Positions 4,145 through 34,200 of a stretch of DNA of 64,000 bases are shown one piece after another (within the stretch, counting starts at the first letter, position 1; the number at the start of each line of letters is the position of its first letter). The translations under genes and the position numbers were made by a program. The stretch lies in contig NC_058514.1 in NCBI RefSeq assembly GCF_020382885.2, forward strand, positions 67,001 to 131,000, written 5' to 3'. The DNA is from Scatophagus argus (Eukaryota > Chordata > Actinopteri > Scatophagidae). The notes below the pieces were generated by a model that did not search any database, had not been told where the DNA came from, and saw only the letters and a program-made list of their open reading frames with translations.

Positions 4145-4185
4145 AGGCTGAAGTAGTAAGCTGTGGTACAAAGCTCACAGTCACC

Positions 4186-6981
4186 ATGGGGAAACATTTC
4201 CACTTGTATGAGAACATTTCTAAAGTGAGTCCCTTTGAGGGGCCCCAGTATTACCTGGCCCCTCAGTGGGCCTTTCACCTTCAGACCATCTTCATGGGCT
4301 TCGTCCTGTTCGCTGGAACACCTTTAAACTTTATTGTTCTCCTTGTGACGCTCAAGTACAAGAAGCTCAGAGTCCCTCTGAACTACATACTGGTCAACAT
4401 CTCCGTCGCAGGATTCATCTTTGTCACCTTCTCCGTCAGTCAGGTGTTCGTCTCCACAATGAAGGGTTACTATTTCCTGGGACACACCATGTGTGCCCTG
4501 GAGTCGGCCATGGGATCTACAGCAGGTAGATAACACGATCTACACATGTTGTTTCTACACAGTAGTACTGCGTGCACTGTCACACGGTATGGAGGCTGCT
4601 GGAGCAGTTGGACAAAACCAACTATCTTTTATCTTTTCCTTTAAGCAGGCAGAGAAACTGAAGACAGTTTTAACATGACTCTGTTGATCTACTGTATCAT
4701 CTGCTGTTTACTATGAACTTCTTCTGTACTCTTAAGGATTGGTGACATCCTGGTCTTTGGCTGTCTTATCCTTTGAAAGATACCTGGTCATCTGTAAACC
4801 GTTTGGAGCCTTTAAGTTTGGCAGTAACCACGCTCTGGCTGCTGTTGCCTTCACCTGGTTCATGGGGATCAGCTGTGCCATCCCACCTTTCTTTGGTTGG
4901 AGCAGGTAGGTAACACACAATATATACATATACATATTTATATTGAGGTATGTATACAAAAGTTCACAAAATTAAATATAACGAACAAGGTGCTCCAGTG
5001 ACCTCTCAACCACAGGGTCACGGTCTGTATTCTAGAAGTCCTGAGGCCCTTGGTTTTGTGGGGACTGAGATGACGGTGGAGGTCTTGAAGCAGCGCAGTA
5101 TTTGGCATGTCTCCAGTGAAGTGTTGAAGATGAAATATTTTTACTCTTTGCCTGGTAACAGCTGGACAATTGTTTGTATATTTAGTTGACCATTTTAATA
5201 AATATGATGAAATCGTAAAAGGTAGTAATGATTAACCAAAATTAACATACAAATCAACATGGGAATGACAGCAGGTGTTGCAGACTATTAATCTCTTTAA
5301 AGAAGTATTCCAACCAACATGCTTCACCCACCACCTTCTCCAACCAACTTCTCATGGCTGTAACTCAGGCAGTTTCAGTATTTTCAGTATTTAGTATAAA
5401 AATATAAAACACAAAATACACAACACTGAAATATTTTAATGAAACTATACTAATTTACTAACTCAATCCATCAAATACAAATGACAAAATACTATTTTTG
5501 TATCTCAAATGCACATTTTATATTTTAAGGAATGTCTTCCTGTCTGTATGATTTTTTTTATATACGGTATATATATATATATAGATAAACATGTCAGTTA
5601 TGTGGTTTAAGGTACATCCCTGAGGGTTTGGGTTGCTCCTGTGGACCTGACTGGTACACTCACAACGAGGAATTTAACTGCAGCAGCTACACAAATTTCC
5701 TGATGGTGACCTGCTTCATCGCTCCACTTAGCATCATAATTTTCTCCTACTCGCAGCTACTGGGTGCTCTGAGGGCTGTGAGTAGAAAACATCCTGGTTT
5801 AACATCCTGGTTTGGTCCTGGTCTTAAGCTGAAGTTTGAAGTCATCCTTCTTGTTCTTTTCTTTTGTTCAGGTAGCAGCCCAGCAGACAGAGTCAGTCTC
5901 CACCCAGAAGGCAGAGAAGGAAGTATCAAGAATGATCGTCGTAATGGTGGGATCCTTCATCATCTGTTATGGTCCGTATGCTCTTGCAGCTCTTTATTTT
6001 GCCTACTCAGCAGATGAAAACAAAGATTATCGACTTGTCACCATCCCAGCATTTTTCTCCAAGAGCTCGTGTGTCTACAACCCCCTCATCTATGCCTTTA
6101 TGAACAAACAGGTGAGCAGTGTTGACTCTAAAACTAACTGGCAGGCAGGTGAACTGACAAGTGAGGAAACACAAAGTTTAAGTCTTAATAATGAAAGCTT
6201 CGTGCATCATCACATCCAGTTAATTTTATCAGTGAAAACTGACATAAATGTTTGTTATTTAACAGCAACTGTAACAAAATGTTTTGTATTTTCATCAGCA
6301 AGTAAAGTATAAGCCAAAGACCCACCAATAGTTTCTTGGATGTGTGCCAACAGAAGTGTTTAGTTTGTTGCCCACTCAGTAGCACATCAGTCCTCAGCTG
6401 TCTGCTGTACATAAGCTTTGGTCCACTCATGTAACCCTTATAAAGTAATTTTCACAAGAAATCAGTCTTTTATTTTGAGATAATGAGATCAACTGACCTG
6501 TTATCAGGGGAAGTGAGTTCTTTATCTCAAGACAACATAATAATTGGCTTGTGGCCAACTTTAAGGTCAGAACTGCAACATGTTACTGAATTAGTTTCTG
6601 AACGATCAACTGCTCTGCCATAGAAAGAGCAGCAAGCTGTGCTAATGCTAATGCTAGGTGAGCAGCACAGACTGTGTGAAACATGGATGAAGACTCTGTG
6701 ATGTCTGTAAAGCCACTAGGAAGCCCCCCATCACTTTTTGTCTTATAATTGAATCAATGAATCACAGAGAATTTTAACGCTTGAATGCACGAACGGAAAC
6801 CAATTATGAACACGTTAGAGGATGGTGTGATTGTTTCTCCTGCTGTTCTCAGGTCAGACCTGATGGTTGTTGTATTTCTCTTCAGTTTAACACCTGCATC
6901 ATGGAGACAGTCTTTGGAAAGAAAATGGACGAATCATCTGAAGCTTCCTCCAAGACAGAGGTGTCCTCAGTGTCCAAATAA
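4186..6981 (+). CDS. opn1sw1: SWS1 (ultraviolet) cone opsin, five exons
   Basis: Exons are 4186-4525, 4737-4905, 5612-5777, 5872-6111 and 6886-6981, all with GT-AG sites, giving a 336-residue opsin. The product starts [20 protein letters not shown], typical of fish SWS1. It shows the Glu113 counterion (CALES), the ERY motif after helix III, and the retinal lysine in [14 protein letters not shown] (bovine K296). The residue aligned with bovine 86 is Phe and site 90 is Ser, which in SWS1 opsins means UV rather than violet tuning. It would act as the light receptor of UV cones. AATAAA overlaps the stop codon and a second one lies near 7424; a hAT MITE lies between them. Confidence 0.97.
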
Positions 6982-7940: not shown

Positions 7941-9911
7941 TTAGAACTCGTCGTGTCGCATTAAAGCCTCACCGAAGTCCGTCACCTGACTTCCAACAAA
8001 CACGTCGTATTTGTCGAGGATTTCCTTTTTGGCGAGTTTTCCGTCCTGAACAACACACAAAACACAGGTGAGACACAGGTGAACAGGCACACACTGAACA
8101 GGAAAAGATGAAGCAGTGGCATCAGCGTCAAGATTCACCTGGTTTTTGTCGGACTCATGCAGAAGGTGTTTGGCTTCAGCCTCAGCGTGGTCATAATCGG
8201 ATGGAAGAATCCAGTCCAGAGTTTCCTCTTTGTCCATCTTTCCGTCGTGGTTTTTGTCTCTGAACTCAGAAAACTGCTGACGTTCTGTTGTCACCCACTC
8301 TGGTTCTTCTTCTTTGTCGTCTGCAGTATACATGTCACCTACAGACGAGGAAACCGGAGGAAAGACTCGCACTGTGCAATCCTTTTAATCACACCTGGAA
8401 GTACTTACAAGTACTGTAGAAGTACCAGTACTGCAAATCGGGTAATACTGAACATTTTATATTCAGCAAAATGTCCACACAGCAGGCTTAAAGAAAGGAT
8501 GTAATCAATAAGTACTGATCCTCAGCCTCTTCCTGTTTAAAACTGATTTGAAAGAGAAGATGATAATAGTACACATGTAAGTAGTAGTGTGTTGTACTTC
8601 TTACCGATGTACTCCTGCAGGTCGATAAAACCGTCTCCATTCCTGTCAATGTCTTCTATGGTTTCCTGAGAACAGAGAGCACACATGACGTCAGTGACAT
8701 CATGTGATGTCACTGACATGATGTCAGTGACATCACGCTCACCTGCACCACGACATCCTTCATGTGTTCGTGGTCTTCAGGATGAAGAAAAGCCGTGAAC
8801 TCATGTTTGTCTGCAGTCGTGTCTCCATTTCTGTCTGCGGCTCTGAATCGTCTCTCGTCCCTCCACATCATGTGTGTGTAGTTGTACTCTGAGTCTGGCT
8901 GAGGGCTGTCTGTTAGAGTGAATCAGTTGTTAAGTGCTGTGTCGCTCACACAATCAAACACGGGAACACTGAGACCAGATTCTTTACCCAGATAACTCCC
9001 ATATGTGACGTTCTTGTACTCGTCCCAGCTGATCAGACCGTCATGGTTCATGTCGAAGTCTTTCCATTGGCGCTCCACGCTGCTATAAATGTGCTTCTTC
9101 TGAGCATTTTTGATCCAAACCTTCAGCTCCTCCTCAGAGATAAAACCATCTTTGTTGCTATCCATTTTGTCCACGATGACACTGCACAGAGATGCACAGC
9201 TTTGTTACAAAACCAGTACTTTTCAACTGATGATGTGAAAAACTCTGGAGACTGAAGACCAGCATCCATTTCATCTGACAGAGACGATCGCTCTGTGACC
9301 GAGATTAAATTCAGTGTCTAACAGTGAAAACACGAAGACATAAATCCATCATCAGCACACACGTTGGTTCAATCCTGTTAAAGGTGTCTTTACGCCTCCA
9401 CATGAACTGACTGATCAACGGAAATGAATAATAAAAAAAAAAATCTGTGTAAACCCACAAAAATACCACCTGAGCTTGTTGAACCAGTTGTGGACACGTC
9501 AAGGAACCGGGAACAAGGAAATTAAAGCAGAGGATTTCCAATCTGTTACACGTCTAGGTAGCCAAACCTGCAGCTCAGCCACACAGGCAGTCAGAAAACA
9601 TTTGGACTTTACTCTCTTTCCTCAACAAGACTTTATTGCAAACAGAAACCCTGTCTCAGTAAAAAAGATTCACCTGGGCTGAGGAGGACTCACCTGAGCC
9701 TCCGTTTGCTCTCCTCTGGGGGGAGCTGGTCAAAGGTTTTGGCCTCTTCTTGACCCAGAAAAGCTTCATGGTCATAGTCGTAGTTTTTGTTGTCATCATG
9801 CTCAAGATTGCTGAGCGGTTCTTCGTCGTGAACTCGACTCTTCCTTTCTGTTGGCTTACTGCTGCCGTAGACGATGCAGAGGGCAAAACACATCAGGAAG
9901 TGACGAAACAT
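7941..9911 (-). CDS. calu: Calumenin, ER EF-hand protein
   Basis: Coding exons on the minus strand are 9694-9911, 8988-9181, 8743-8909, 8605-8665, 8139-8338 and 7941-8045, giving 314 residues, close to the usual 315. The protein has an N-terminal signal peptide ([18 protein letters not shown]), a run of EF-hands with Ca loops such as [36 protein letters not shown] and [12 protein letters not shown], and ends in HDEF, the calumenin ER-retention signal. Calumenin is a CREC-family calcium binder of the secretory pathway that modulates gamma-carboxylation and ryanodine/SERCA function. Adjacency to the SWS1 opsin is conserved in vertebrates. Whether this is the teleost a or b copy cannot be settled here. 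Confidence 0.96.
8686..8735. repeat. Palindromic TGACATCA cluster with a CRE core in a calu intron
   Basis: TGACGTCA, the perfect CRE core, is at 8686-8693. It overlaps a near-perfect 28-bp palindrome at 8690-8717 with 13-bp arms (GTCAGTGACATCA). A further ATGTCAGTGACATCA copy follows directly. It lies between coding exons 3 and 4, a few tens of bases from each. Confidence 0.75.
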
Positions 9912-10334
9912 CCTGACAGAGACACCAAGACAAACCAGAGACAGATGGACTCCCTGAACACATCACACTGTTGGAAATGCATTATATATACTCCACTAGA
10001 GGACAGTGTAGAGATACCTGTATTTTACTTCCATCTTGCACTACATTTATGACAGCTGTAGTTTATTTTTCATATTAAAATAAATGATCAGTTTGTAAAA
10101 CACATCACGCCATTATACATTAAACCATACAATCGTACATAAAGTACTTTTAACAACAAAAAATTACTGCTTACTCAACACGTCTGCTTTTACTTCAGTC
10201 AAATTTTCATTGCAGACTGCGTACCTTACGTACCTACTACTAAGATCAATTTAAACTGTACTCGTTTTATTTTACTTTATCACATTAATAATAACTTCAG
10301 AGCAGATCCAGTTCCTGAATACGTGACACCTTAC

Positions 10335-11888: not shown

Positions 11889-14800
11889 CTATTGCTTTAA
11901 GTGTGCATTCATTTCCAGTTTGGTTCTCAGAGTTTGTTCCAGCAGGGTCTTCATATCCAGCAGCGCTTCCTCCACAGCTCGGACCAGAGGTGCTGCTTTG
12001 TTTTCTCTGCTCGTCTCAGAAGCTTCAAAATGGGACACTATGAAGTCGATGTGATTATTCTTAATACCGTAGCACACGTTGAATATACCGGGCTCTTCAG
12101 GGCCCAGAAAGGGCAGACATCCGGTCTGGGACGTCACCTTGTGAACCAGAGCAGAGAGCAGAGAGCAGAGGTTAGCTACTGCAGCACTGATGCATCTGAT
12201 ATGAGCTTCTGTGATATGAAGTCAATCATTTTCAACAGCACACAGTTGTTACTGTGTTAGAACGTGAGAAGTTTCTTGTTTTAACCGGATCCTTGTCATG
12301 TTAACATGACATTTTCCTTCTCGTAGCAAATTATTTGATTTGAAAGGAACTTTTAGTTATAACAACATGTTACTTGCTTTCATCTGTTATACCTGAAACT
12401 TTCTCATTAGACTGTTGAGCACATGTCATGATGCTAAGTGTGACAGACAAAGGATTCAGTCTGTAAGTTCCGAGACTAAACTAAGGAGAGCAGATCAACG
12501 CCACGCAAGACCGAAGGAGTGAGAAAGTCTGAAGCCTGAATACTCAGCATTCACTGCCTGAGAGGTGAGACTGAGGCTCTCAGGTGGCTCATCATCAGTG
12601 TGAGAGGCTCCTGAGCCCCCCCCCCCAAACACACACAGTTGAATATGTGACTTTTTGCTCTAGGGTACACTGAGATAAATATGACATTTAACCACTTTAT
12701 TTTGCTTCGTGTCTTCCACAGTGTGAAGTTGGAGTGTCTCTCTGTTTTGAGGTATTTCTGGTTGCAGTCACAGCATGGCTCTTACCTGACTTGTCCAGAT
12801 TTTGTAGTCAAAGGCTTTAATGTAGGAGGTGTCTGTGAAGATATCAGGCATGGGGATATTTTCCTCAACAGCTTGCAACTCCAGACCAAAGAGATGTGTT
12901 TCTACAGACTGCCCACTGATCCCCTGTTGAGATGGACACAGTTCAGTTATGGCTCAGTGTGACATCATTTTTCCCCACAAAAACTCACTGTGTGATCTTA
13001 AGCGCAAACAAATGTGTTCCATGGGTTTTTCTTTCTCATGAAACATTTGCAGAGCAAAATTTTCCTGCTGAGACCTGCACTCTTTGCAGTTACGTTTAGT
13101 TATTCACAATTGCTGTGTTGCATTATCTGCTTACGTGCTCATATGCAGCCTCATGCACATTAACAAACCACACGTGAACACGTGTACACATTGTTGCTCC
13201 ATAGCACAACTGATCACCACTGATCAAAAACATCACAGACTACCTTTAACTTTCAGCTGGGCACAAAACAAGTCTTACATGAAACAAACTCCAGAGAAGG
13301 AAGCGGTTCAGCTCACAGAGATGAGTCAAGAACACTCACTGAGGTGGGGCAGTAAAGTCCCTCTCTGCTCTGACAGTAAGCTGGACTAAGCTGAGTTATA
13401 CTCACCATCATACTATACCGTCTGTGTGCTTTTATAGCTTCCTCCAACAACTCAACCTTCTCTGAGCTCTGTGCAAACAGAAAGAAGACAGGAATGTTAA
13501 AACTCAGCTGCTAATGCCTGATCTGATGTCAACACATTTTTCAGGCTTATACAAAATAACTTAATGAGCAGATGTGCCAAATACCGTAAAGTAAAAGTAA
13601 AAGATCTCTATTTATTAAACTAAAGTCAGCTTCCAAGTGAATGGAAAGCTGACTTCTCAGAGATATTATAGTTATTAAAAAAGGATAGGATTTGGGTGAG
13701 TATCTCTTCTCATGGAGCTACATTATGTAAGACTTCACCTGTTTTGTGGGGTCATCAAAGGCCTTGACAAAGGCCACTGAGGCACCCGTGGTCGTATTCA
13801 TCCCTGCCAAACGGCCCATATTGAACAGACGTAGTGTGGTGGGCTCCAGCACCGGACAGCACCGCAGCTGCATCCTGGCCAACGAGAACAGATAAATGTT
13901 TTCAACAATCATCCAGAGCCCTCAAACAAATCATGCAGCTCTGCACACAGCAGCTGCTTTAATGACTCCATTTTGAGTTGAGATCATTTGTTTATTAATT
14001 TGTCCAGTATCTGGCCTGTGAATGCCGCACTCTGTTTCCTTATCACAAACAGCATAATTTAAAGCAGAGCCTGAATGCATTTGAAAACCGACTGAATCGA
14101 TTTCACCTCAGTTAGGGAATCCAAGATCCTCTGTTTCTGTCTGACTGAGTGACCAGGCTTTGAAGCTTTAAGGTCCCCATGACAGACGTTGGCTGATTGG
14201 TGCCAAGATCCTGATAAGAGTCTTATCAACATTATGATGTGTTTATAAAACTATATTGGTGTTAATAAAAACATCATAAAGGTCATAAGACATGCATAAG
14301 CATGTACAAAAAAACTTTTCCACAAAAGGTTGTGACACAAAGCATCTCTAGTTAAACGATTCCTCAAAGCCCCACCTGTAGTAGGCCAGCTGCAGAGCCA
14401 TCTGCACAAAAGCATCCGGGCTCATCCTGAGGGCCTTCAGGACGCTTTTCCCAAACTGGTGAAATACCGTCACAGTCAGGTCGAGGTTTTGGGCCAATCT
14501 GTGTTGGGGAAGGGACAAGCGTCAGGACAATGAGATGGTGCCTTTGATGGTCTGATTGTGTTAACAGCAGGTCTCAGACCTGCCAGGTTTATAGTTTTTA
14601 TTCTGCAAAATATGATGCCCCACACTTCCTAAAGATGGAACAACTGCACCACCCACTGCACCACTCAACTGTAATAACTGTGCCACCCAGCTGTAAGGAC
14701 TGCACCACCCAGCAGATCTTGTAGAAAGCATGATATTAAAGGGTTGACCCTGAATGTAAAGAAGAAAACCATCACCGAGTGAAATCCATGGTGCTGCTGA

Positions 14801-17800
14801 GTGATTCAGTGGTAACACCCCTTCCTGGTTATCAGGTGTGTGCAGTCTCTGCTGTCAGTCAGTCATCAGTCAGTAAGTGCTGCTGTATGTAGCTGCTCAC
14901 ACAGTAATATGTGGGAACCTTCTTTTGGGTTTCTATTTTTCTGGCCACTGGATGTCTGCATAACTTTATCCCAAATAAAAGTTGCTCTTACGTGTCCATG
15001 TGCTGCTTGGCCTCCTCAATATCCTTTTTGATGTCGGGAGTGAGGTTGAAGTGGATCTTCTGGGGTGCTGGCAGAGGCAGAGGCAGAGGCCCTGGGGGAG
15101 CTTGCATCTGCAGATGTTTTCTCCTGTTTTTACACAAGACAAAAGAAATGATAAATGGGCTGAAGAAGAACCCCGTGGAGGCACGGTGGTGCAGTGGTTA
15201 GCACTGTCGCCTCATAGCAAGAGGGTTCCAGGTTCGAATCCCGGTCTGGGCCCTTCTATGTGGAGTTTGCATGTTTGCATGTCCAGGGTGTACCCCGCCT
15301 CTCGCCCGTAGTTAGCTGGGATAGGCTCCAGCTCCCCTGCTACCCTGACGGATAAGCGGTATATAAAACGGATGGATGGATAAAGAACCCCTCCTTGAAC
15401 CGCCACCTTAACGTGGTGGAGGGGTTTGAGCACCTGAATAATCTTAGGGGCTACGTTGTCGGGGGCTTAATGCCCCTGGTAGGGTCTCCCAAGGCAAACA
15501 GGTTCTAGGTGACAGATCAGACCAAGAGCGGTTCAGAAGCCTCTGATGAAAGATAAAACAATAAGGATGTGTACATTGCCCAGACTGGCATTACCGGGGC
15601 CTCACCCTGGAGCCAGGCCTGGAGTTGGGGCTCGCAGGCGAGCATCTGGTGGCCTACGGGACCCAGCCGGGTACAGTCCGAACAAGCGACGTGGGCCCGC
15701 TCTCCTGTAGGCCCACCACCCATGAGAGGGTTCAGAAGGGACCGGTGCAACGTGGTTTGGGCGACAGCTGTGGATGGGGATCCCAGCAACCCAAATCCTG
15801 GACAAAAACTCTGGCTATGGGGATATGGAATGTCACCTCACTGGGGGGGAAAGAGCCTGAGCATGTGTGGGAAATTGAGCTGTACCGGCTAGAGATAGTC
15901 GGGCTCACTTCCACACACAGCCTGGGCTCTGGAACCCAACTCCTGTAGAGAGGCTGGACTCTCTTCTACTCTGGAGTCACCCATGGAGTGAGGTAGCAAG
16001 CTGGTGTAGGCTTGCTCATAGCCCCCCAGCTCAGCCGCCACGTGTTGGAGTTCTCCCTGGTGAAAAGAGAGTCGTTTCCCTACGCCACATATGTCAAACT
16101 GGTCCACAGGAGGGCTGGTGTGGCTGCACGTTTTTGTGCCAACCAACCAAGAGCACACCGTTTGACCAATCAACTGTCTGAAGACGGAGATCAGTTTATT
16201 AAATGAATCAAGTCTGGTGTGCTGCTACTTGGTTGGAAAGAAAACCTGCAGCCACACCGGCCCTCCTGTGGACCAGTTTGACATGCCTGCCCTACGCCTT
16301 CGGGTCGGGGATAGGCCTCTCACTGTTGTCTCGGCCTTTGGGCCAAACAGCAGTGCAGAGTACCCGGCTTTCTTGGAGTCCCTGGAAAGAGTACTGGAAT
16401 GTGCTGCGATGACAGTGACACCTGGAGGGACGTGATTGGGAGGAATGGCCTCCCCGATCTGAATCCGAGTGGTGTTCTGTTGTTGGACTTCTGTGCCAGT
16501 CACAGTTTGTCCAAAACAGGTGTGACACCCAATGATCAACTTCGTGGTTGTGTCATCTGGCCTTCGGCCATATGTTTTGGACAATCGGGTGAATAGAGGA
16601 GCAAAGCTGTCCACCGATCACCACCTGGTGGTGAGTTGGATCCGCTGGGGGAGGAGGAAGCCGGACAGACTTGACAGACCCACTGTGAGGGTCTGCTAGG
16701 AACGTCTTGCAGAACCCTCCGTCAGAGGAGTTTTCAACTCACACGTCTGGGAGAACTTTGACCAGATCCCGAAGGAGGCTGGGGACATTGAGTCCGAGTG
16801 GACCATGTTCTCCACCTCCATTGTGGAAGCTGCTGCTCGGAGCTGTGGTCGTAAGGTCTCTGGTGCCTGTTGTGGCGGCAATCCCCGAACCCGGTGGTGG
16901 ACACCGGAAGTAAGGGATGCGATCAAGCTGAAGAAGGCTTGTAGAACTCCCGAGGCAGCTGATGGGTATCGGAGGGCCAAGCGTGTGGCAGCCCGAGCGG
17001 TTGTGGAAGCAAAAACTCTGCTCTGGAAGGAGTTTGGGGAGGCCATGGAGGAGGATTATTGGTTGGCCTCAAGGAAATTCTGGCAAACCATCCTGTGCCT
17101 CAGGAGGGGGAAGCAGTGCCCTGCTAATACTGTTTACAGTAAAAGTGGGGAGCTGCTGACTTCGACTGGGGATATTGTTAAAAGGTGGAAGGAATACTTC
17201 GAGGATCTCCTCAATCCGGCTGATGCATCTTCCGTCATGGAAGCAGATGCTGAGGACCCTGAGGCGGATCCACTCATTACCCAAGCCGAAATCACTGAGG
17301 TAGTTGGGAAGCTCCTCAGTAGCAGAGCACCGAGAGTGGATGAGATTCGTCCTAGGTACCTTAAGGCTCTGGATGTTGTGGGGCTGTCTTGGTTGACACG
17401 ACTCTGCAGCATCGCGTGGCAGTCGGGGACAGTGTCCTTGGACTGGTGGACCGGGGTGGTGGTCCCTCTTTTTAAGAAGCGGGACCGGGAGGTGTGCTCC
17501 AATTACAGAAGGATCACACTTCTCAGCCTCCCCGGGAAAGTCTATGCCAGGGTACTGGAGAGGAGAATCCGGTCGATAGTCGAACCTCGGATCCAAGAGG
17601 AACAATGCGGTTTTCATCCTGGTCGTGGAATGCTGGACCAGCTCTATATCCTCCACAGGGTACTTGAGGGTTCATGGGAGTTTGCCTAACCGGTCCACAT
17701 GTGTTTTGTGGACTTGGAGAAGGCCTTCGACCGTGTTCCCTGCGGCATCCTGTGGGAGGTGCTCCGGGAGTATGGGATCCGGTGTCCTTTGCTAAAGGCT

Positions 17801-20800
17801 GTGCGGTCTCTGTACTCCCGGAGCAGGAGTCTGGTCCGCATTGTCGGCAGTAAGTCGGACCTGTGCCCAGTGCATGTTGGCCTCCGGCAGGGCTGCCCTT
17901 TGTCATCGGTCCTGTTCATTATTTTTATGGACAGGATTTCTAGGCGTCTGGTTTGGGAACCATATGATTTCATCTCTGCTTTTTGCGGATGATGTTGTCC
18001 TGTTGGCTTCTTCAGGACAGGACCTTCAGCATGCGCTGGGGAGGTTTGCAGCTGAGTGAGAAGAAGCTGGGATGACAATCAGCACCTCTAAATCCAAGGC
18101 CAAGGTTCTCGATCGGAAAACGGTGGTCAGCCCCCTCCAGTGGAGGAGTTTAAGTATCTCTGGGTCTTGTTCATGAGTGAGGGAAGAATGGGAGCATGAG
18201 ATTGACAGGCGAATTGGTGCAGCGACAGCAGTAATGCGGTCATTGTATCGTCCGTCGTGGTAAAGAGGGAGCTGAGCCGTAAGGTGAAGGTCTCAGTTTA
18301 CCAGTCAATCTACGTTCCTACCCTCACCTATGGTCATGAACTTTGGGTCATGACTGAAAGAACGAAATCTCAGATACAAGCGGCTGAAATGAGCTTCCTG
18401 CGCAGGGTGACGGGGCGCTCCGTTAGGGATAGGGTGAGGAGCTCTGTCACCGGGGAGGAGCTCGGAGTAGAGCCGCTGCTCCTCCACATCGAAAGGAGCC
18501 AGTTGAGGTGGCTCGTGCATCTGTTTCGGATGTCCCCTGGACGCCTTCCTGGGGAGGTGTTCCGGGCATGCCCCACCGGGAGGAGGCCCCGAGGAAGACC
18601 CAGGACACGCTGGAGAGACTATGCCACTCAGCTGGCCTTGGAACGCCTAGGGGTCTGCCCGGAAGAGCTGGAGAAAGTGTCTGGGGAGAGGGAAGTTTGG
18701 TGCATCCCTGCTCAAGCTGCTGCCCCCGCAACCCGGTCCCGGATGAAGCGGAAGAAGATGGATCGATGGATGGATGATTAGAATTAAATTGATTCACGCT
18801 GGCACAGGAGAAAAGTTTTTTTTTTTAAAACTGTGGTCAATCGTATTTTCCAGCTTTTGTCAGTTCTTGTGAAAAGTATTCAGGCCTTTGTATTGCTGTG
18901 AAGTCACAATACTCCATAATGACATAAAGTTTACTTCACTGCACTGCCTTTAATGTCGTCACAAATGATTTCTGTCAAATAGTCAGAGAAATAGGAGAAA
19001 TTACAGCAAAGAGGTGCTAAGATAAATATTGATGATTTCTCAAGAACATGTGGCTGATAATTTTAATGTTTGCAGGGTCTGCAGGGTCTGCAGGGTGTAG
19101 GGTGTAGTCTGCAGGGAAATCAGTTTTAGTGACTGAGCCAGCTAACAAGCTAACAAGAGTTAGAAGACCAAAGATATGATCTTACTAAAAGAAGGATCTC
19201 AAGAATATCTGTGAGAAGATTAAAAATAATCCAGCTCAGCAGTAACACTCAATGAAAATAGAGGACATCACTTCATTCACCACAATGTTTGTCAGACTCT
19301 GATGTTTCATCTGTAAATACGTCTCATTGAGTTCAACCCTCCACTGATATGAACACCAGTAATACTAACAATAACACGCTGATGTTTAGTGAGCGCATTG
19401 GAAACCTGACGACATACTGTTAGACCTCCAGGATCCATACAGTAACATTGAGGCACATCGGGGCAGTCGTGGATCAGCGGTTAGGGTATCGGACCCGTAA
19501 CCGGTGGGTCGCTGGTTCGATTCCCCGTACCGGTGTCCATGGCTGAGGTACCCTTGAGCAAGGTACCTAACCCCCACTGCTCCCCGGGCGCTGCACGCGG
19601 TCGCCCACTGCCCCGGGTTTGTTGTGTGTGTGCACGTCACTTGGGTGGGTTAAATGCAGAGCACGAATTTCGTTGGAGTGAGTTCCCTCCAATGACAAAA
19701 TATGTCACTTTCTTTTTCTTGAGCCGTCACCTGTGTGATCACACACTTCTACCTGCCGAGCTAACAGCAGTAAATTGGTCTCATTGATGACTTCTGAGTC
19801 ATGTGAACAAACAAGCACTCGAATCACCTCAACAAGCTCACTGATTTTTGATGTACTTACATCTGTTCTACAGTGTAGTCAGTGATGCTCATCTGGATCA
19901 TACCATCAGCAGCTGCATGAGAGCAGTTCACACCACAGGTCCCATCTTGTGCAACGATGATCTGAAAACAGACACGCATTATCACTACAGGAGTTTGCTG
20001 TGCTCACATTGTTCTGATGGGTTACTGCACTACTTGGTCAGTACAGTCGAGGAGCCAGACTTTTACCTTAAGATCCCTGATTAAAGTGAATGGATACCAC
20101 GACCACAAAGAAAAGCTGCTGCTGTACCATTTCCATTTTTCTGCCGTTTCCTCTACATATCCCACATATTATTGATCATCTACCCACAGTAGACAGCTGG
20201 CCTCACTGATCATCCACTGCTTTATAAGAAAGTTAAACGAAGTTAAACACTTTGAGGGGAAAATAGTATGGGAGCTCAGGTCAAATTTTAATGTGTGCGT
20301 GTGCATGTGTGTGTGTCATCACCTGCAGCCCCTTGTCAAACCAGCGGTTTCCACTGCTCCACTGGCTGCCCCCTCCATGCAGCATCTGAAGAACAGGAGC
20401 ACTGTGACTCTCCTCAGCCGGGGACATCACTCCATCCAAACAAATTGTAAAAAGGCTGCTTTCGATAGCCAACAGCGACTCTTTGTTGGCATTATCTAAA
20501 CACATCAAAATATGAGAAAATATTATGTTGTTTATGTCAGTATGTCGTGTAATCACACTTCAACTGACCAGTTCTAAATATTTTCACATTATGGTTTCAG
20601 ACTTGTTTTATCAGGAAATATTATTTTCCTACTTTCTCATTCAGTATTATGCCGTGTGTCTTAGTTTAACTTGCATTAGAGTTGAGTGGTGCTCACCCTT
20701 GATGAGGTTGTTGTAGATTTTGCCCCAGACGTCACGTTGCTGGGTGGTGAGGATGCCGACAGGCTCTGTGTTGGTCTGCAGAGAAGAGTTGCGGATCTTC

Positions 20801-23800
20801 TCTAGCTGAACACAGAGCTGATCGACTGTCAGCATAGTCCCATCACTGTGGTACACATCCAGCTTAAAGAACTAAATTTAACAGGATGACACACATGAAA
20901 GCAAGACTGGATACCCAACCAAAGACACTCAGGAGCAGCCCAAGTTATTTAATCCCATTAATAAACTGACGGAATCTCACTGAGACCAGGGCTTCACGTG
21001 AACAGTTAGTATGAGCCTCTAAATGGGGTTAAATGTATTTAAATATTCCTTCATTTTGGCAAAAACTTTAATTTAAAATATCAGTGCAAAGAGGAAAGCA
21101 AATTTGATTTTCCAGATTAATGGATTAAGAATAAACTGGATAACATGGCCAAATATCTGCTGGACTAACCTGTTTTCACTTGATAATTTATGTCCTAATG
21201 TGGTTCATCGAAGGTTTTGAAGTGCACATCTTTGTATAAATAAACTGAACAGGAGGTATTCCTGTAGAAGGACGGTGGTCTGAAAAAACAGACCAGGCTT
21301 TGTGGTGGGGCCCAGACAGACGAGCTAACTGCTCCTGGTTCTTCTTTAAATGAGTCAGGTTGAGGAGACTCTGATCATAATGTAAGTGCTCTCACCTGAC
21401 AGTTGTGTACTACAGTGATGTGTTTGGTGGGGCTGGAGCTCTTGCTATGGAACACCAATGTGTCTGTCTTCAGACCGGGGATCCGGCAGGACGATATCAT
21501 CTGCTCGAACTGCTTCATGCACAATGGTCTCCCTCCCATGTGGTCATACAGAGTCCCCCTGCCAAACATGCCGTCAGTTTTGACCACTGATGTCCCTCAA
21601 ACTGCTGTATTCCCTGGATGTTTAGTACTAATTTTAATTAAGTAGAGCTGGTCCCAAATTTGGACCAAGACTAGTCTCTTGATCCTAATCCAGACAGACT
21701 GTCTGACCATGGCTGAAGTGGTACACTACACACAAACACTTAAGTTTGAAATAAAGCCTAATTTATAATCTTGAGGGAACTGATTTTATATCTCTGGCAT
21801 CAAAAAACATCAAAAAAGAAAAATACCCAAAATGATCATATAAGAACAGCAGCTGAAACCTTTTTGTTTCAGTAATTTAACTGCTTCATCAGCTGCTTCA
21901 TGTTTCAAGATGAAAACAACAAACTGATTGGCATTGATTAGCTCTGGTTGATACCAAGGTGTGTAAGAATAAGTCATGACCCATAAAACCGAAGAGGAAA
22001 GTGGGACAATAAAAACATTTTTAAGTTCAGTACTCACTTGTAATACATTGTTATTACATCCAAAAAACCTGCTATGGCTATGGCGGCACACCTAAACAGA
22101 GGAAACAGGGTTAATCATTTAAAAAGAAACTCCAGTCGCTCAGTACTGTGCTTTTATATGGATTAATATGGATTTAAAAGAAGAGACTGAGCTCTCTGCT
22201 CATTCAGTCTCTCGTATGGATGAGGTCTATCTTGCCTGCTTTTAGACTGTTACCACAGAGGACGTTATATAACATGCTGACTTCCCCTGATTAGTGATTT
22301 GGTGTGAATTTCATACAGGGAGGAATTTTTTTTTATTGATTTGTGTAAAGTTGAAGGCTTTGGTGTCTGGTGTCTGGTTTTGATTATAGTTATATCTTAA
22401 GGACTTTTGAGGGGGAGACATCCATTCATCCATTGAGTCTCTCTTGAATCAGCTCAGAAAAGATCAAACAAGGTTTCATTAAGTTTAAATCCAGTTAGCT
22501 TGTCAGCATATGCTGATGATGTGACCGTTTCGTCATGGGTCAAACAAACATTCAAACTCTCTAACAGAAACTGGATTTATGAGCAGGTGTGAACTGGCCC
22601 AGGTGTGAAAAGTCTCAAACAGAGCTCCTGTTAGTACGTCTGGTGAACATCAGCTCTCTGGCCAACACAGTGAATGAGCTGCAGATGGTCCCCTGTGGGA
22701 ACCCTTAATGGGAGCAGTCAAAAGAGTGTATAGATCATGGTGGAACGAACTAATGGAGTCCCCGTGGAGTCCTCGCAGTTTTCTTGCTTTTCTGAGCCGA
22801 CTGCAATCTACTTCACAAACAAGCTCCAAAACTCGAAATAACAGCTAAACTCAAGCCACTTCACCAAACCAGGACCCCAGCAGCAGGAAACCACCGGACG
22901 AGCTGAATATGTCTGAATAAGTCAGCAGCCCTAACAGCAATAAGCCATGTGAGATGAACTGCAGTTGAGCTGTCTGTCAGTAACGAGGACTGCGTTTTTT
23001 GGAGAACCAAGTGTCACCAACCACAAACATGAAAACAATCATTATGGAACAATTTGATCAAATCAGATGAAAACTTTGGTCCACATCAGAGCAACAAAAA
23101 AAACCAAAACATTTCAGCCTGTGTGTGTGTGTGTGTGTGCGCACGTGTATGTGTGTGTGTTTACCTTATCTGCTTCCTATCTCCATAGTCTTCTGGGTTA
23201 AGCAACAATGCAGGGTTGGAAAAAATCACCACGGGTTTGCGGGCATTAAGGTATTCAAACTTCACATAATTGTCTGTCAACTACAAATAGTAAGTAATAC
23301 ACACACACACACACACACACACAGATAAATTAATTAAAACAATGTGACAGCAGTAAATCACTTGAATTTGTGAAGAAGATCTTAGGAGAGGACATGCTCA
23401 GTTATGCTAATTAGGAAAGACTAACTCTGTGTGTGTGTGTGTTGTGGGTGTGGCTTCCTGATTCCCAGCACCAATCCCGACTCTTCCATCAGATTGGTGC
23501 TAACTTTCAGTGGCTGCTCTCTCTTCGTTATATTGGAATTATTTTTCTGACGAGTTCTGCTGTTTGTGTTTCTGTCTACAAACCACTACTTCCTGCCTCT
23601 TTTGTCTCACTGTTTGTCTGTCTCACTATTTCCAGCCGACGGGCCTGAGCCGCTCTCCTCTCCTCACCTGTCTGCCACCTGGATTACAGCAAACCTTTTA
23701 GTCCATTTGCTTTGGGGTCTAATAGAAAACCAAACTGCACCAGTGATCATTTTGAAGATCTAGAAGAATATCTGAACCTCACAAAGTTATAAATATTAAT

Positions 23801-25458
23801 GAACATGTGATTATTGAACTTGATGGTGATCGTACTAATGTTTAATCAGACATCGTTACCTCTGTATGCATCTTCACCAACTCCAACTCTGAGCTTGTCT
23901 TTCATTTTCCATTAATGGCGTCATTTGATTTTTGGATTAATGATCCTAAATACTGTAATATTTTTTATGGGAAACAAAGCTAAATGCAAATTAATTCATT
24001 AAATTAAACTTTTAATCTTTCATGATATTCATGACATTCATGATGTGTAGAGAACTTCATCCACCACCCCCCTTTACTTCAGATGTTTATATGCATCTTC
24101 TACGCAACTGTATATTTTTGTACTTTTAATATAACCCTCTATTTTTATCTTTTTATCTATCTTTTATATATATATATATGTAATGTATAAGCACTTTTGC
24201 GCTGCCTTGTCCTGCTAAATGTTGGCTGCTGTAACAACAAAATTTCCCCTCTGAGATCAATAAAGTCTCATCTTATCTTAAAAACCCTGATTTATTTTCT
24301 CAACTGTGTCTAGAGCTGAGGGTTGGGGATGGGGTCTAAAGCTCAGCAGTTGCGTCCGTAATGAGTTTCTATTTCAGGACATCAGGAGGTCACAGAAGCA
24401 CCATTGGCTCACTTAATGTGTCAGCACCTCTTGGTTGGTGTAGTTGGACTTGGTGTAGTTGCTGAGCTCACCCAGTTCTCAGTGGTGCAGGCTTTCCTCT
24501 CCAGGGCCCTCTGCAGTCTCTCTCCGATCCCTCCTGCTTTCAGAAACTCTTCCACCAGCTCCTTGGTTTTCCTCAGCTCATCTTCCTCCACGAAGGGCTC
24601 CAGTATACTGAGGTAGAGCTCACAGGTCTGCTGCAGAGGGGGGACAGGCAGCCTGGGCAGCTCGATGTACTGGCTCAGGTGTCTGCCAGAGACCATAGTC
24701 ACTGATCCAGGTTTCACCAAGTGCTTCATTTTCCCCATCTTAACCTGACAGACACAACATGGAAGCCAAAAGAATGAATTTTAATAACAAGAAATGACAG
24801 CTGGTTCAGTCAGTTACGATTGATTGATAACGAAGAGTTCATATATAAAAAAAACAAAAAACAAAAAACAAAGATCTGTTGTTTTATCTCCTAAATCTTG
24901 AATATCAGTCAATCTGTGTTTTAAGATGTGTCACTGCAAACAGGAGAAGAACCATTTAAAAAGAGGAAGTACACACAGCCTGCAGTCCTAAGGGTCTGCA
25001 GTTCAGTTGTTTTTCATTTAAACCAAAAATGAAAAAGAAAAGGGAAAAGAGAGCTATTTTAAACTAAAAAATATCAAAGAAAAAAAATTTAAAAGAAGGA
25101 ATTTTTTTAGACAAAAACTGAACTATTAATTGAATTATTATTATGATTATTATTATTAATAGAGTAAAAAAAGGAAAAAAGCTCAGTGTTTTGTTACTGG
25201 TTCAAACTTAAAACAAAACCTTTGTAAACAACAAATCAAAGTGGCAGAATGTGGACAGATCCCTGAGACAGTCTGGTCAACCAGTGGAATAATTAAAATA
25301 TAGAATCAAAATATTCAAAAAAACATGAGAAACATCATACAGAAATATTTGTTTTCCCACATGATGGAATCTCGTCACTGAACGTCAGATGTGGTCGACA
25401 CACAGAAAATAAGTCAAGCTTTGTTACTTACCAGAGCTCTGCTGCAAAGTCTGAACAT
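11889..25458 (-). CDS. Carnitine O-acetyltransferase-like protein with altered acceptor site
   Basis: Fourteen minus-strand exons: 25432-25458, 24472-24744, 23165-23280, 22038-22091, 21396-21558, 20697-20871, 20323-20495, 19861-19961, 14992-15123, 14376-14498, 13739-13874, 13406-13468, 12786-12923, 11889-12137. All have GT-AG sites and they join in frame to 640 residues (human CRAT 626). The N-terminus ([17 protein letters not shown]) looks like a mitochondrial presequence. The choline/carnitine acyltransferase fold is evident throughout: [42 protein letters not shown]. The catalytic His is in NCSHAAADG (H342), and the CoA-binding lysines (FGKSVLK) are kept. Oddly, the residues at human Y452, T465 and R518, which hold carnitine, are Leu, Leu and Thr; the STS motif is WTS; and the C-terminus runs past the usual AKL. 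The enzyme is therefore probably an active acyl-CoA transferase with a changed acceptor, or a pseudoenzyme. It is not choline acetyltransferase, which keeps the YES tyrosine. Confidence 0.92.
15175..15382 (+). repeat. Shortened copy of the GATG-tailed tRNA-SINE
   Basis: It has the same head (GGCACGGTGGTGCAGTGG, GGTTCGAATCCC) and tail (CGGATAAGCGGTATATAAA then GGATGGATGGATA) as the copy at 121, but lacks about 160 bp of the body. A 9-bp target duplication AAGAACCCC lies at 15166-15174 and 15383-15391. It inserted exactly at the 5' edge of the Rex3 element that follows. Confidence 0.85.
15392..18779 (+). mobile_element. Rex3 (RTE-clade) LINE, nearly full length, inactive
   Basis: A 3.4-kb non-LTR retrotransposon. 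It starts with TCCTTGAACCGCC, a 5' region conserved among long copies of this element. An AP-endonuclease region follows ([12 protein letters not shown] near 15827; DFCASHSLS near 16485). The reverse transcriptase region has [20 protein letters not shown] at about 17597, then [33 protein letters not shown] and the [12 protein letters not shown] active site near 17975. The C-terminal part ([19 protein letters not shown]) is at 18550-18620. The sequence CAGGGCTGCCCTTTGTCA at 17888, and GGTGGACCGGGGTGGTGGT at 17444, correspond to the classic Rex3 PCR primer sites. The 3' end is the (GATG)n-type tail. The frame is broken several times and the endonuclease part carries a MITE, so it cannot move by itself. 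Confidence 0.85.
16086..16289. mobile_element. hAT-type fold-back MITE inside Rex3
   Basis: A 204-bp element whose two ends are long inverted repeats of roughly 65-70 bp. The right end, inverted, reads CAGGCATGTCAAACTGGTCC, and the left end matches it from ATGTCAAACTGG onward. An exact 8-bp target duplication CCCTACGC lies at 16078-16085 and 16290-16297. Removing element plus one copy restores the uninterrupted Rex3 sequence, so this insertion is younger than the LINE. Confidence 0.9.
19455..19712 (+). repeat. tRNA-derived V-SINE-like element
   Basis: A tRNA-like head (GTGGATCAGCGGTTAGGG; GGTTCGATTCCCCG) is followed by the common fish core CCTTGAGCAAGGTACCTAAC and a tail region with ACTTGGGTGGGTTAAATGCAG. 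A related but diverged copy is at 37730. It lies in crat-like intron 8, about 150 bp downstream (minus strand) of exon 8. Confidence 0.8.
22400..22620 (+). pseudogene. LINE reverse-transcriptase fragment (L1/Tx1-like)
   Basis: A short plus-strand stretch reads [10 protein letters not shown], the YADD catalytic core of a non-LTR reverse transcriptase, in crat-like intron 3. The frame is open for only about 50 codons around it, so this is a decayed fragment. The clade is inferred from the local motif only. Confidence 0.5.
23122..23160 (+). repeat. (TG)n microsatellite at a crat-like splice donor
   Basis: An interrupted TG/CG tract. On the gene strand it is a (CA)n run that begins right after the gtaaac donor of exon 3. 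Confidence 0.9.
23301..23324 (+). repeat. (CA)n microsatellite upstream of crat-like exon 3
   Basis: A clean CA repeat about 20 bp upstream, on the gene strand, of the acceptor of exon 3. It is complementary to the TG tract on the other side of the same exon. Confidence 0.9.
24190..24285 (+). repeat. L2-type LINE 3'-end remnant
   Basis: Contains GCTGCTGTAACAACAAAATT, then CCCCTCTGAGATCAATAAAG and a TCTCATCTTATCTTA tail, as in the 3' ends of fish L2-like elements. It lies in crat-like intron 2. Confidence 0.6.
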
Positions 25459-31206: not shown

Positions 31207-34200
31207 TACTAGCCCCTAATTGTTAATGTTAACATAACAATTCAAACAAAAATACAACAAAAGAGCCAAACTATAATACATAATTCATCCTGAACAACAG
31301 ATTTACACTTCATGCAACAAAGTGCGTTTGGTCACTGGCCGTTCTATGGTGTTTTATTTAGTCTGTAATTTTACCGAACGCACCGGCCCATGTTTATCAT
31401 GGAAAACCTCCAGTGTCAGGATCCACGAGGTGCTGAAGCATCCATGATTGCCACAATATCTCCAAAAACCAGACTCCTTTTCTTTTGGTTCCATTTCTGC
31501 CTTTCTTGGAGCAAGGGCAGATACTCTCACACCCATCTTTTCCAGAAAAGATCAGCAAGATATTGTACCTGTCGCCATCGTCTTCTCACATAGTGATTGT
31601 GAGGCTCAAACAGTCCAGGTGGCAGAGCTGGTTTTCCTTTTAATAGAAGAAGGTGGTTAGGTGTAAGTGGCTCCAAGTAATTTGGATCGTCTGAAAGCTT
31701 GGTGATTGGTCGATCTTTCACAATGGCCTCCACTTCGCAGAACACCGTATGAAGCCCATCATCATCCAATTTCTGCTGACGTAGGACAGAACTGAGAACT
31801 CTCCTCACCAGGCGAATCATCTGCTCCCACACACCACCATGATGCGAACCTGCTGGTGGTTTAAAACTCCAACGGATCCCAACCTGTGATAGAACTCCTT
31901 GAATCCTATCCTGATTCAATGCAGCCAAAGCCTCCTTCAGCTCTCTTTCTGCTCCAACAAAGTTAGTACCATTATTCGACCATAGGCGTGCCACTTGTCC
32001 TCTCCTGCTGACAAAGCGCCGCAAAGCATTAATGCATGCATCTGTGTCCAGTGAGCTTGCTACCTCCAGATGGATGGTCCTGCTCGCCATACAGGTAAAT
32101 ATAACTCCATAACACTTGGTTATGGTTGATCTTCCTTTCTTCACCTCGATTGGTCCAAAATAATCTACTCCGGTGTCGACTCACAGTTGTCCTTCCAGAT
32201 GAGAAAGCAGAAATCTCTTCACTGTATCTTTGTGTCTGGCAATAGCGAATGATAGCAACCTCTGCTTTCAACAGATAATCCAGTGTCAAAAGGTGGGAGC
32301 CACACATTGCTTCCTGTCCTGGCTGGTTTCCTGGTTAACCACAGAAGCATCCTTCAATCAGAAAAATAAGCAATGAGACGGTCTGTCGGAATAGACACAA
32401 CATTCACACTGATGGCGTTAGTTGTTACCTGCTTTCTGACTTCTTGGTCATTAAGGAACCTCCTCTTCAGGCCCTGGATCCTTTGCTTTGCCACTGCAAA
32501 ATTATTGGGTAGACAGACCTTTGTCTTCTTGAAGTTCAACTTCAGACAATACTTCTCCTCGTGAAGTACTGCTGACTGTTCAAATATTTGCATAAACCTG
32601 TGGTCCTTTCTCAACATTTCCTTTTCCTTTCTAACGTTTTCATTGAAATCATAGGTATTTTGTTTGGTCAACATTTCCTCCAGTCTGCACACAGATGTCC
32701 TGTTCACCGTGGCTGAGAACAGCTCTTCCTCCATAGTGCCATTGGTTCCATTCAGTGGACCATTAACGACCCATCACAGTACTGTCCTAATGGTGTATGG
32801 ATCATCTCCCTTGGAGTTTATAACCTCCCAAGGTTCCAATAACTTGGGAGCATTGGTCCCAATCAAAAGGTCTACCTCCACCTTTATAGATGGGATGTGA
32901 ACTTTAGAAAGGTACGGCCACTTTGCCAGGTCCCCGGGTGTCGTCCCCAGTTACTGGCATTTCCTTCTGTGTAATGACTTCTTGTAGATTGTGAAAGTTA
33001 ATGCTGCCCAAACCAGCTACCTCCAACTCAGTTAATGAGTAGGCTGTTCTGACTGTTTTCTGTCTCTTTGTGTGCAACAGGAAATTAGTTCTTCTCCCTG
33101 TAAGATTCAGCCTACGCATAAGTCTTTCTGTGCAGAATGTGCCACTGCTTAGATGGCTCCTCCTGAGGTGTTTGCCTTTTGATGTGAAGCACGGTGGGAT
33201 GAGCTTGTCCACAAACTTCACGTCGAGCGCTTCTCACAGTCTCGGCTCATGTGTACAATACACAAACATGCGCAGCAAACTCCCATTTCCCTTAGAAACC
33301 GTATCTTTTCCTTATGCCTTTTTCCTTGGAACTGTTTGCATTCCTCCAACGAGTGACCACGAGCACAACACAAACATTCATGTTCTACCTTTCCAGGATC
33401 AGATATTTGTTTGTCTCCCTTTGACAGATCCATAGATGTTACTGTGGTGGCAACAACACCTCCCTTTACTCTGTTCCTGGGCTGTGATTTAAAGACAGTC
33501 GGCGATTTAAACCTGGTGCTTGGTTTTATCCTAGCACCAACAGATCACCAAACAAGGGGTCAGAAAGTATTCTGACACGTCGCTCAATAAACATGACTAA
33601 GTCACCAAACCAAGCTCTGTGGTGAGTATTTTCCATGATGTCATGTGCTGCAGTCCTCCATTGCTCTCTCATTTTGTACGGCAATTTTGTGACGATGGCT
33701 CTCATATTCACAGGCATGTCCAGTTCTTCCAGATATTGCAGCTCCTCCATTGCATTGCAGCACCCTCGCAAGAATAAGGAGAAGGCCTGGATTTCTTTCA
33801 GCTGTTCAGTTTTTATTGCCTGCCAGGCCAAAGCCTTTTCCATGTAAGCTGCTGCTACTTTGTATGGATTTCCAAAATGTTCTTGAATGAGGGCCTTTGC
33901 CAGAGCATAGCCACGCTCATAGTCCATATGTTGCCAGCTGCGCACTAGCTCTCTTGGTTGTCCCTGTGTGAATTGCTCCAAATAATACAAGCAATCAGCC
34001 TTTCCGACCTTTTACTCTACTCCTTGCTCAAAAGCCTTGATGAACGCTCCATATTTGAGAGGATCCCCATCAAATACGTGATGGAAGTGTCAGCAAGCGT
34101 TGCTGCTGTACCAGGGCAGCGGTGATCTCATTTTGCTTGTGCATGACAGTTAGTAGGTCAAGAGGCAGATTTTGACATTTTAACTGTTGACTTGTGGAAT

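What the first reader, a model, noticed from the sequence alone, without database searches (positions are those of the whole stretch)
11889..25458. Carnitine acetyltransferase paralogue whose carnitine-holding triad is entirely replaced
Seen: a complete 14-exon, 640-residue frame with correct splice sites and the acyltransferase fold intact, including the catalytic His (H342) and the two CoA-phosphate lysines. Known for mammalian CrAT: Tyr452, Thr465 and Arg518 bind the carnitine carboxylate. Position-by-position alignment with no gaps around each site gives Leu455, Leu468 and Thr521 here. Choline acetyltransferase keeps the Tyr and changes the other two to Val and Asn, so this is a third state. 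Inferred: the enzyme still binds acyl-CoA but transfers to an acceptor other than carnitine, or acts as a CoA-binding pseudoenzyme.
Basis: partly seen in the sequence, partly recalled or inferred. Interest (0 to 1): 0.8.

Follow-up and report, generated by a model that had tools for sequence, protein, structure and literature searches.

The report
Fish carnitine-enzyme duplicate, rebuilt acceptor pocket
A fish genome carries an intact extra copy of the enzyme that attaches acetyl groups to carnitine, in which the parts that hold acetyl-CoA are kept but the pocket that holds carnitine has been rewritten, so it probably acts on some other molecule, although this has not been tested in the laboratory.

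Summary
A 14-exon, 640-residue frame lies on the minus strand (25458-11889). It is a carnitine/choline acyltransferase closest to CrAT. The catalytic His and four CoA-side residues (K419, K423, D430, E453) are kept; the carnitine-carboxylate triad Y452/T465/R518 is L/L/T, and W102, R469, S552, M564, F566, V569, V570, G573 and G575 changed too. The same genome has two canonical CrAT and two ChAT genes. The gene is a DNA-level duplicate of the CrAT beside PTPA (57% identity, dS about 0.7) and lost its peroxisomal tail. It is not a passive pseudogene: no stops where neutrality predicts about 11-15, and whole-protein relaxation is rejected (LRT 34-38). But constraint shifted over about half of the protein, branch-average omega is not significantly below 1, and positive selection was not shown (control branches also score). 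Best reading: an acyl-CoA enzyme with a new acceptor that is neither carnitine nor choline; thioesterase, pseudoenzyme and slow decline remain live rivals. No orthologue, transcript or structure could be examined.

The parts
25432..25458 (-). exon 1 (start codon; basic presequence-like N-terminus)
   Evidence: no acidic residue before position 37, 7 K/R in the first 30 residues; exon 1 itself not backed by homology
24472..24744 (-). exon 2
   Evidence: Pfam PF00755 match begins here
23165..23280 (-). exon 3 (W101N, W102Y in CrAT numbering)
22038..22091 (-). exon 4
21396..21558 (-). exon 5
20697..20871 (-). exon 6
20323..20495 (-). exon 7
19861..19961 (-). exon 8, with catalytic His342 (codon 19919-19917) and Asp346 (CrAT Glu347): HAAADG motif
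14992..15123 (-). exon 9
14376..14498 (-). exon 10, with CoA residues K422, K426, D433 (CrAT K419, K423, D430)
13739..13874 (-). exon 11, with L455 (Tyr452; codon 13849-13847), kept E456 (Glu453), L468 (Thr465; codon 13810-13808), N472 (Arg469)
13406..13468 (-). exon 12
12786..12923 (-). exon 13, with T521 (Arg518; codon 12899-12897), W555 (Ser552), kept S557 (Ser554)
11889..12137 (-). exon 14, with P567 (Met564), L569 (Phe566), E572/E573 (Val569/Val570), I576/N578 (Gly573/Gly575) and an 8-residue extension past the place where the sister gene ends in AKL-stop
15180..18790 (+). LINE-like reverse-transcriptase remnant inside intron 8 (not part of the gene product; named by eye)
   Evidence: read; not classified by any tool

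Best explanation
The gene is a DNA-level duplicate of the teleost CrAT gene that sits beside PTPA (crata-like), now near the end of another chromosome-sized contig. Its product is predicted to go to mitochondria and no longer to peroxisomes, to bind acyl-CoA in the ancestral way, and to use the ancestral His (HAAADG) and the Ser554 equivalent to move the acyl group. The pocket that held carnitine has been rebuilt: the carboxylate ligands are gone (R518T, T465L, Y452L; R469N nearby), the aromatic at the quaternary-ammonium end is lost (F566L), a bulky Trp comes in (S552W) and two Glu are added (V569E, V570E). The most likely consequence is transfer to an acceptor that is neither carnitine nor choline, neutral or carrying an amine, possibly larger. 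Shown: gene structure, residues, origin, retained coding constraint on part of the protein. Inferred: fold, acyl-CoA binding, catalysis, localisation, nature of the acceptor.
For: Intact 640-codon frame and splice sites. PF00755 566.4 bits. Of 62 columns invariant across nine CrAT, ChAT, CROT, CPT2 and CPT1 rows, 53 are kept, including H343, K419, K423, D430 and E453; nine differ: V79I, W102Y, L381I, Y452L, R469N, A510G, D517E, G573I, G575N. Six of eight CrAT-conserved acceptor-lining residues (list recalled) changed, against 114 of 336 conserved columns overall (hypergeometric P 0.02); 0 of 4 CoA residues (list from PMC11852590) changed. Grouped with C20 (support 87/99), branch 0.63 against 0.096. 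The model in which every constrained site is relaxed on this branch is rejected (LRT 38.4 with four genes, 34.3 with six). No stop against a neutral mean of 11.4-14.6 at 0.25-0.37 substitutions per site, and exon lengths that differ from C20 only by multiples of three. Precedent in PF00755: fungal polyketide-synthase cAT domains esterify or release polyketides (passages of PMC8582187 and PMC10512364; that the acceptors are polyols is recalled).
Against: The changes are far wider than the pocket: 114 of 336 CrAT-conserved columns, about 42% of sites in shifted classes, about 51% of constrained sites released. Branch-average omega is not significantly below 1 (LRT 2.1-3.7), and in the better-fitting three-ratio model the canonical sister C20 also has a raised omega (0.34 against 0.41 here), so the contrast with C20 in dN/dS is model-dependent. 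The branch-site signal (LRT 9.2-10.1; 1 of 100 null simulations as high) is not specific: C21b gives 8.7, C10 7.0, C17 6.5, C4 3.1, C20 0. The sparing of the CoA residues alone is not significant (P 0.19). No orthologue, transcript, structure or assay was available.
Confidence: 0.45

Rival explanations
1. Acceptor-less enzyme: the rebuilt pocket admits water and the protein works as a mitochondrial acyl-CoA thioesterase that helps set CoA and acetyl-CoA levels.
For: Catalytic His, CoA residues and the Ser554 equivalent kept while the acceptor ligands are lost. An HXXXDG acyltransferase, yeast Atf1p, is also an efficient thioesterase (abstract and passages of PMC5484351).
Against: Atf1p is only a loose analogue; nothing in the sequence points to water rather than another acceptor; two Glu and a Trp are gained rather than simple loss.
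Confidence: 0.17
2. CoA-binding pseudoenzyme: it binds CoA or acyl-CoA but catalyses nothing, and acts as a sensor, a scaffold or a brake on canonical CrAT.
For: The four CoA residues checked are kept, the DGYG motif and the acceptor ligands are destroyed. Another CrAT paralogue of the same genome (C17) has lost the catalytic His itself (H343Q) and D430 while most of its sites stay constrained, so loss of catalysis seems tolerated in this family here.
Against: Catalytic His and the neighbouring acid (HAAAD) are kept, which a pure binder would not need.
Confidence: 0.15
3. Declining gene: constraint was relaxed over much of the protein after duplication and the gene is on the way to loss without a new function.
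For: Branch-average omega not significantly below 1; about half of formerly constrained sites fit omega 1; losses at family-invariant glycines; position 79-92 kb from a contig end.
Against: No stop where neutrality would give about 11-15, no frameshift, splice sites intact; full relaxation rejected (LRT 34-38); family-invariant columns 53 of 62 kept.
Confidence: 0.18
4. It still transfers acyl groups to carnitine, held by other residues.
For: Overall similarity to CrAT.
Against: The three known carboxylate ligands are gone and two negative charges are added. A published redesign of ChAT towards carnitine changed Val459Thr, Asp460Glu, Asn461Thr and Asn514Arg (table passage of PMC5054688), the segments that correspond to CrAT 465-467 and 518.
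Confidence: 0.04
5. Gene-model or assembly artefact; alternative exons restore the triad.
For: No transcript data; exon 1 is only 27 nt and is not backed by homology.
Against: tblastn of the sister protein over the whole window shows a single copy of exons 11, 13 and 14 (the search missed short exons 3 and 4, so it is not fully sensitive); exon lengths match C20 and C4 except for multiples of three.
Confidence: 0.01

Closest known systems
Carnitine O-acetyltransferase (CrAT; PDB 1nm8, 1ndb)
   Same: Closest in sequence (51% identity to human CrAT, 57% to the sister gene C20), same exon sizes as C20 apart from multiples of three, His, the four CoA residues checked and Ser554 kept.
   Different: Y452L, T465L, R518T, R469N, W102Y, S552W, F566L, M564P, V569E, V570E, G573I, G575N; no PTS1.
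Choline O-acetyltransferase (ChAT; PDB 2fy2)
   Same: Also lacks Thr465 and Arg518 and keeps the catalytic His and the four CoA residues (own-genome ChATs).
   Different: ChAT keeps Tyr452, R469, S552, an aromatic at 566 and NGYG (own-genome ChATs); the window protein has none of these and is about 35% identical to ChAT.
Fungal polyketide-synthase cAT domain (PF00755)
   Same: Precedent that a PF00755 domain works outside carnitine and choline metabolism, esterifying polyketides (passages; acceptor identity recalled).
   Different: A domain of a megasynthase that takes its acyl group from a carrier protein (recalled); not compared in sequence here.
CrAT-like paralogue C17 of the same genome
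   Same: Second fast-evolving CrAT relative with an open spliced frame and Tyr452 lost.
   Different: Keeps Thr465 and Arg518 but loses catalytic His343 (Gln), Asp430 (His) and Ser554 (Gly): nearly the opposite pattern.

Membership tests
Carnitine/choline acyltransferase superfamily (PF00755) | Full-length domain match | tested here: met
   566.4 bits against a cut-off of 22.3, profile 1-565 of 574
Carnitine/choline acyltransferase superfamily (PF00755) | Catalytic His with nearby acid (HXXXE/D) | tested here: met
   His342, Asp346
Carnitine/choline acyltransferase superfamily (PF00755) | CoA residues K419, K423, D430, E453 | tested here: met
   four of four kept
Carnitine/choline acyltransferase superfamily (PF00755) | DGYG-type motif (G573 and G575 invariant in nine rows) | tested here: not met
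   GIFN in place of DGYG
Carnitine acetyltransferase (CrAT) | Phylogenetic place inside the vertebrate CrAT clade | tested here: met
   six-row CrAT clade 98/98; grouping with C20 87/99, below the starred level
Carnitine acetyltransferase (CrAT) | Tyr452, Thr465, Arg518 for the carnitine carboxylate | tested here: not met
   Leu455, Leu468, Thr521
Carnitine acetyltransferase (CrAT) | Acetyl transfer to L-carnitine | not testable with these tools
   needs purified protein
Choline acetyltransferase (ChAT) | Tyr452, Val465, Asn518 pattern | tested here: not met
   Leu, Leu, Thr; own-genome ChATs C10 and C21b show Tyr, Val, Asn
Pseudogene | Stops, frameshifts or broken splice sites | tested here: not met
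   none found
Pseudogene | Neutral rate over the branch | tested here: inconclusive
   omega = 1 for the branch average not rejected (LRT 3.7 and 2.1) but all-sites-relaxed rejected (LRT 38.4 and 34.3)

The most novel reading that the evidence does not exclude
A third acceptor class within the vertebrate CrAT/ChAT clade: a fish mitochondrial acyltransferase, born from crata by duplication, that esterifies or amidates a metabolite that is neither carnitine nor choline, in a genome that also keeps a second, His-less CrAT paralogue.
Probability: 0.4. Interest if true: 0.7.

Novelty: new variant of a known kind. Interest (0 to 1): 0.5.

Why it matters
Vertebrates are known to use this fold with two small-molecule acceptors, carnitine and choline (general knowledge). 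An intact duplicate with the acyl-CoA half kept and the acceptor half rewritten would add a third reaction, or a CoA-sensing pseudoenzyme, to fish metabolism, and it offers a natural experiment on how acceptor specificity evolves. It is cheap to test with one recombinant protein.

Tried and rejected
Alternative exons that would restore the triad: tblastn of the sister protein against the whole window found no second copy of exons 11, 13 or 14. Retrocopy: rejected, since introns are kept at the same places as in C20 and C4. Product of the teleost whole-genome duplication: disfavoured, since dS to C20 is 0.70-0.76 whereas C20/C4 gives about 2.0 and the two ChATs 4.1 by NG86. Block duplication with PTPA: the 5 PTPA matches in the genome lie beside C20 only.

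Positive selection: the branch-site test looked significant (1 of 100 null simulations as high), but the same test with other branches in front gave LRT 8.7 (C21b), 7.0 (C10), 6.5 (C17), 3.1 (C4) and 0.0 (C20), so I do not rely on it. In that control the C20 run put 97.5% of sites in the shifted class with omega 1, a sign that the split of changes between the C20 and window branches is poorly identified. Omega for the window branch moved between 0.41 and 0.67 with the model, and the three-ratio model gave C20 itself 0.34. Many codons carry multi-base differences (104 with two, 26 with three of 576), a known cause of false signals (recalled).

Literature: ten searches. In the listings seen I found no description of this gene or of a fish CrAT with replaced carnitine ligands, and no paper naming a CrAT-like gene beside the UV opsin. 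This is weak: only open-licence papers are held, one search listed 15 of 1,670 papers, and most papers were seen as listings only. Two fish papers that print 'carnitine O-acetyltransferase-like' (PMC8774099, PMC3762756; one table passage each) give only a gene label, so whether either is this gene is unknown. Zebrafish Crata has an AKL end and Cratb has no PTS1 (passages of PMC8919083), matching C20 and C4 here.

Orthologue searches were not made: the collections offered are prokaryotic, viral, phage or plasmid, no metagenome scan was allowed, and the genome has no relatives held.

Limits: paralogue proteins come from my own spliced aligner with human CrAT as guide. On the window gene it reproduced the hand-made model except for a false 26-nt mini-exon before exon 9 and ends cut to the guide, so local errors elsewhere are likely, above all in the CPT1 genes. 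The count of 13 loci is a lower bound (76 of 85 candidates were scored). The tree used 11 rows: human, mouse and 9 of 13 loci; C7b, C21a, C16a and C16b were dropped. The invariant-column count used nine rows (human, mouse and 7 loci), with C22w and C17 as test rows. Codon models used C22w, C20, C4 and C17, or these plus the two ChATs. The acceptor-lining list (W102, Y107, Y452, T465, R518, S552, S554, F566, V569) is recalled; V569 was outside the 336 conserved columns and so not counted. The papers by Jogl 2003, Wu 2003, Cai 2004, Hsiao 2006 and Cronin 1998 are not held.

Full report
Observation. The gene was rebuilt by hand from the reverse strand: 14 exons, 25458 to 11889, 1923 nt with the stop, 640 aa, each of the 13 introns GT...AG. 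Pfam gives one family, PF00755, over profile positions 1-565 of 574 (566.4 bits). Among solved structures it is closest to human and mouse CrAT (642.6-626.8 bits), then ChAT (379-371), CROT (227-225) and CPT2 (199).

What else is changed. With CrAT numbering, W101N, W102Y, Y452L, S454P, T465L, D466A, T467G, R469N, R518T, S552W, M564P, F566L, V569E, V570E, D572G, G573I and G575N are replaced. H343, E347 (as Asp, as in the CROT, CPT1 and CPT2 rows), D356, K419, K423, D430, E453, H519, S554 and Q555 are kept. K419, K423, D430 and E453 are the CoA residues named in PMC11852590 (section 5, part 1 of 2 read). Of 62 columns invariant in nine CrAT, ChAT, CROT, CPT2 and CPT1 rows, 9 differ here; leave-one-out controls differ at 1 of 63 (C20), 1 of 63 (C4), 0 of 62 (C10) and 2 of 64 (C21b). 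Among 336 columns conserved in four CrATs, 114 differ. Six of the 8 acceptor-lining ones in that set differ (P 0.02; the list is recalled) and 0 of 4 CoA ones (P 0.19, not significant).

Relatives in the same genome. The window lies at G000:C22:67001-131000 of a 570.7-Mb assembly in 48 contigs; PF00755 gave 89 exon matches, which I group into 13 loci, a lower bound. Two are canonical CrATs: C20, next to PTPA and ending in AKL, and C4, with no AKL end. Two are ChATs (C10, C21b). By residue pattern, by eye, I name C9 CROT, C6 CPT2, and C7a, C7b, C21a and C16a CPT1s. C16b is a multidomain fusion, and C17 is a second divergent CrAT.

Origin. The window protein groups with C20 (ultrafast bootstrap 87, SH-aLRT 99; below the tool's starred level), on a branch of 0.63 against 0.096 changes per site. 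dN 0.295 and dS 0.705 by NG86, 0.298 and 0.758 by YN00; C20 to C4 gives dS 1.99, so this duplication looks younger than the C20/C4 split. Introns are kept, so it was a DNA-level copy. It now lies about 79-92 kb from one end of an 18.4-Mb contig, among genes read by eye as UV-type opsin, calumenin and GCC1 (7tm_1 and GRIP matches, and EF-hand matches below the Pfam cut-offs). Where the sister gene ends in AKL-stop, this one reads [15 protein letters not shown], so the peroxisomal signal is gone. The N-terminus has 7 K/R in 30 residues and no acid before residue 37, compatible with mitochondrial import (inference).

Is it alive? Neutral simulation of the C20 coding sequence gives on average 7.8, 11.4, 14.6 and 18.8 stops at 0.15, 0.25, 0.37 and 0.6 substitutions per site; none is present here. 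The lowest of 300 runs at each of these distances was 2, 1, 6 and 6. The exons that differ in length from C20 do so by 3, 3, 6 and 12 nt, plus 9 nt inside and 24 nt at the end of the last exon, always whole codons. A two-ratio codon model gives omega 0.62-0.67 on this branch against 0.08 elsewhere; a three-ratio model, which fits better, gives 0.41 here and 0.34 on C20. Omega 1 for the branch average is not rejected (LRT 3.7 and 2.1). A model in which all constrained sites were released on this branch is rejected in favour of one in which about half were released (LRT 38.4 and 34.3). So coding constraint persisted on roughly half of the protein, while the rest changed freely or adaptively. The branch-site test for adaptive change is not specific.

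Mechanism. From the retained half I infer normal binding of acyl-CoA and a working His. From the replaced half I infer that a carboxylate acceptor is no longer held and that a quaternary-ammonium acceptor is unlikely, since the aromatic at 566 is lost. Charge in and near the changed region falls (R518T, R469N, V569E, V570E, partly offset by D466A and E342S), which would suit a neutral or amine-bearing acceptor; which of these side chains face the pocket was not tested. The superfamily has a precedent for other chemistry in fungal PKS cAT domains (polyol acceptors recalled), and an HXXXDG acyltransferase has a precedent for thioesterase activity. A redesign that moved ChAT towards carnitine touched the segments matching 465-467 and 518. 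I put transfer to a new acceptor at 0.45, with thioesterase, pseudoenzyme and decline sharing most of the rest.

Verdict. It is a new variant of a known enzyme family. Interest is moderate: a clean, testable case, but one species, no orthologues, no expression data, and diffuse rather than surgical change.

Noticed in passing
L013/L014 (G000:C17, about 6.430-6.443 Mb, minus strand): Second divergent CrAT paralogue with an open spliced frame: catalytic His343 is Gln, Asp430 is His, Tyr452 is Cys, Ser554 is Gly, while Thr465 and Arg518 are kept; 11-14% of constrained sites fit as released on its branch, so most remain constrained. A candidate CrAT pseudoenzyme.
   Followed up: partly
L022:4867-8772 + (G000:C16, about 7.679 Mb): One open frame of 1301 aa (mechanical start) joins a divergent PF00755 half with Asparaginase_2, HIT and class II tRNA-synthetase (D, K, N) domains; it keeps a HSAVDG motif. 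More acyltransferase sequence lies upstream in other exons.
   Followed up: partly
window 11889-11915: Stop loss relative to the sister gene: where C20 ends in AKL-stop this gene reads [15 protein letters not shown], so the peroxisomal targeting signal is gone.
   Followed up: yes
window 4132-6309 +: Exons of a rhodopsin-family receptor that looks like the UV-cone opsin SWS1 (name by eye; 7tm_1 match).
   Followed up: partly
window 7944-9962 -: EF-hand exons that look like calumenin (name by eye; EF-hand matches below the Pfam cut-offs).
   Followed up: partly
window 47368-50840 +: Coiled-coil gene with a C-terminal GRIP domain, GCC1-like (name by eye; GRIP match).
   Followed up: partly
window 31530-34576 -: Retroelement pieces with an integrase-core-like stretch (28.8 bits, below the Pfam cut-off of 32.6); Pao/BEL-like by eye. 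Only described.
   Followed up: no
window 15180-18790 +: LINE-like reverse-transcriptase remnant in intron 8 of the CrAT-like gene, by eye.
   Followed up: no
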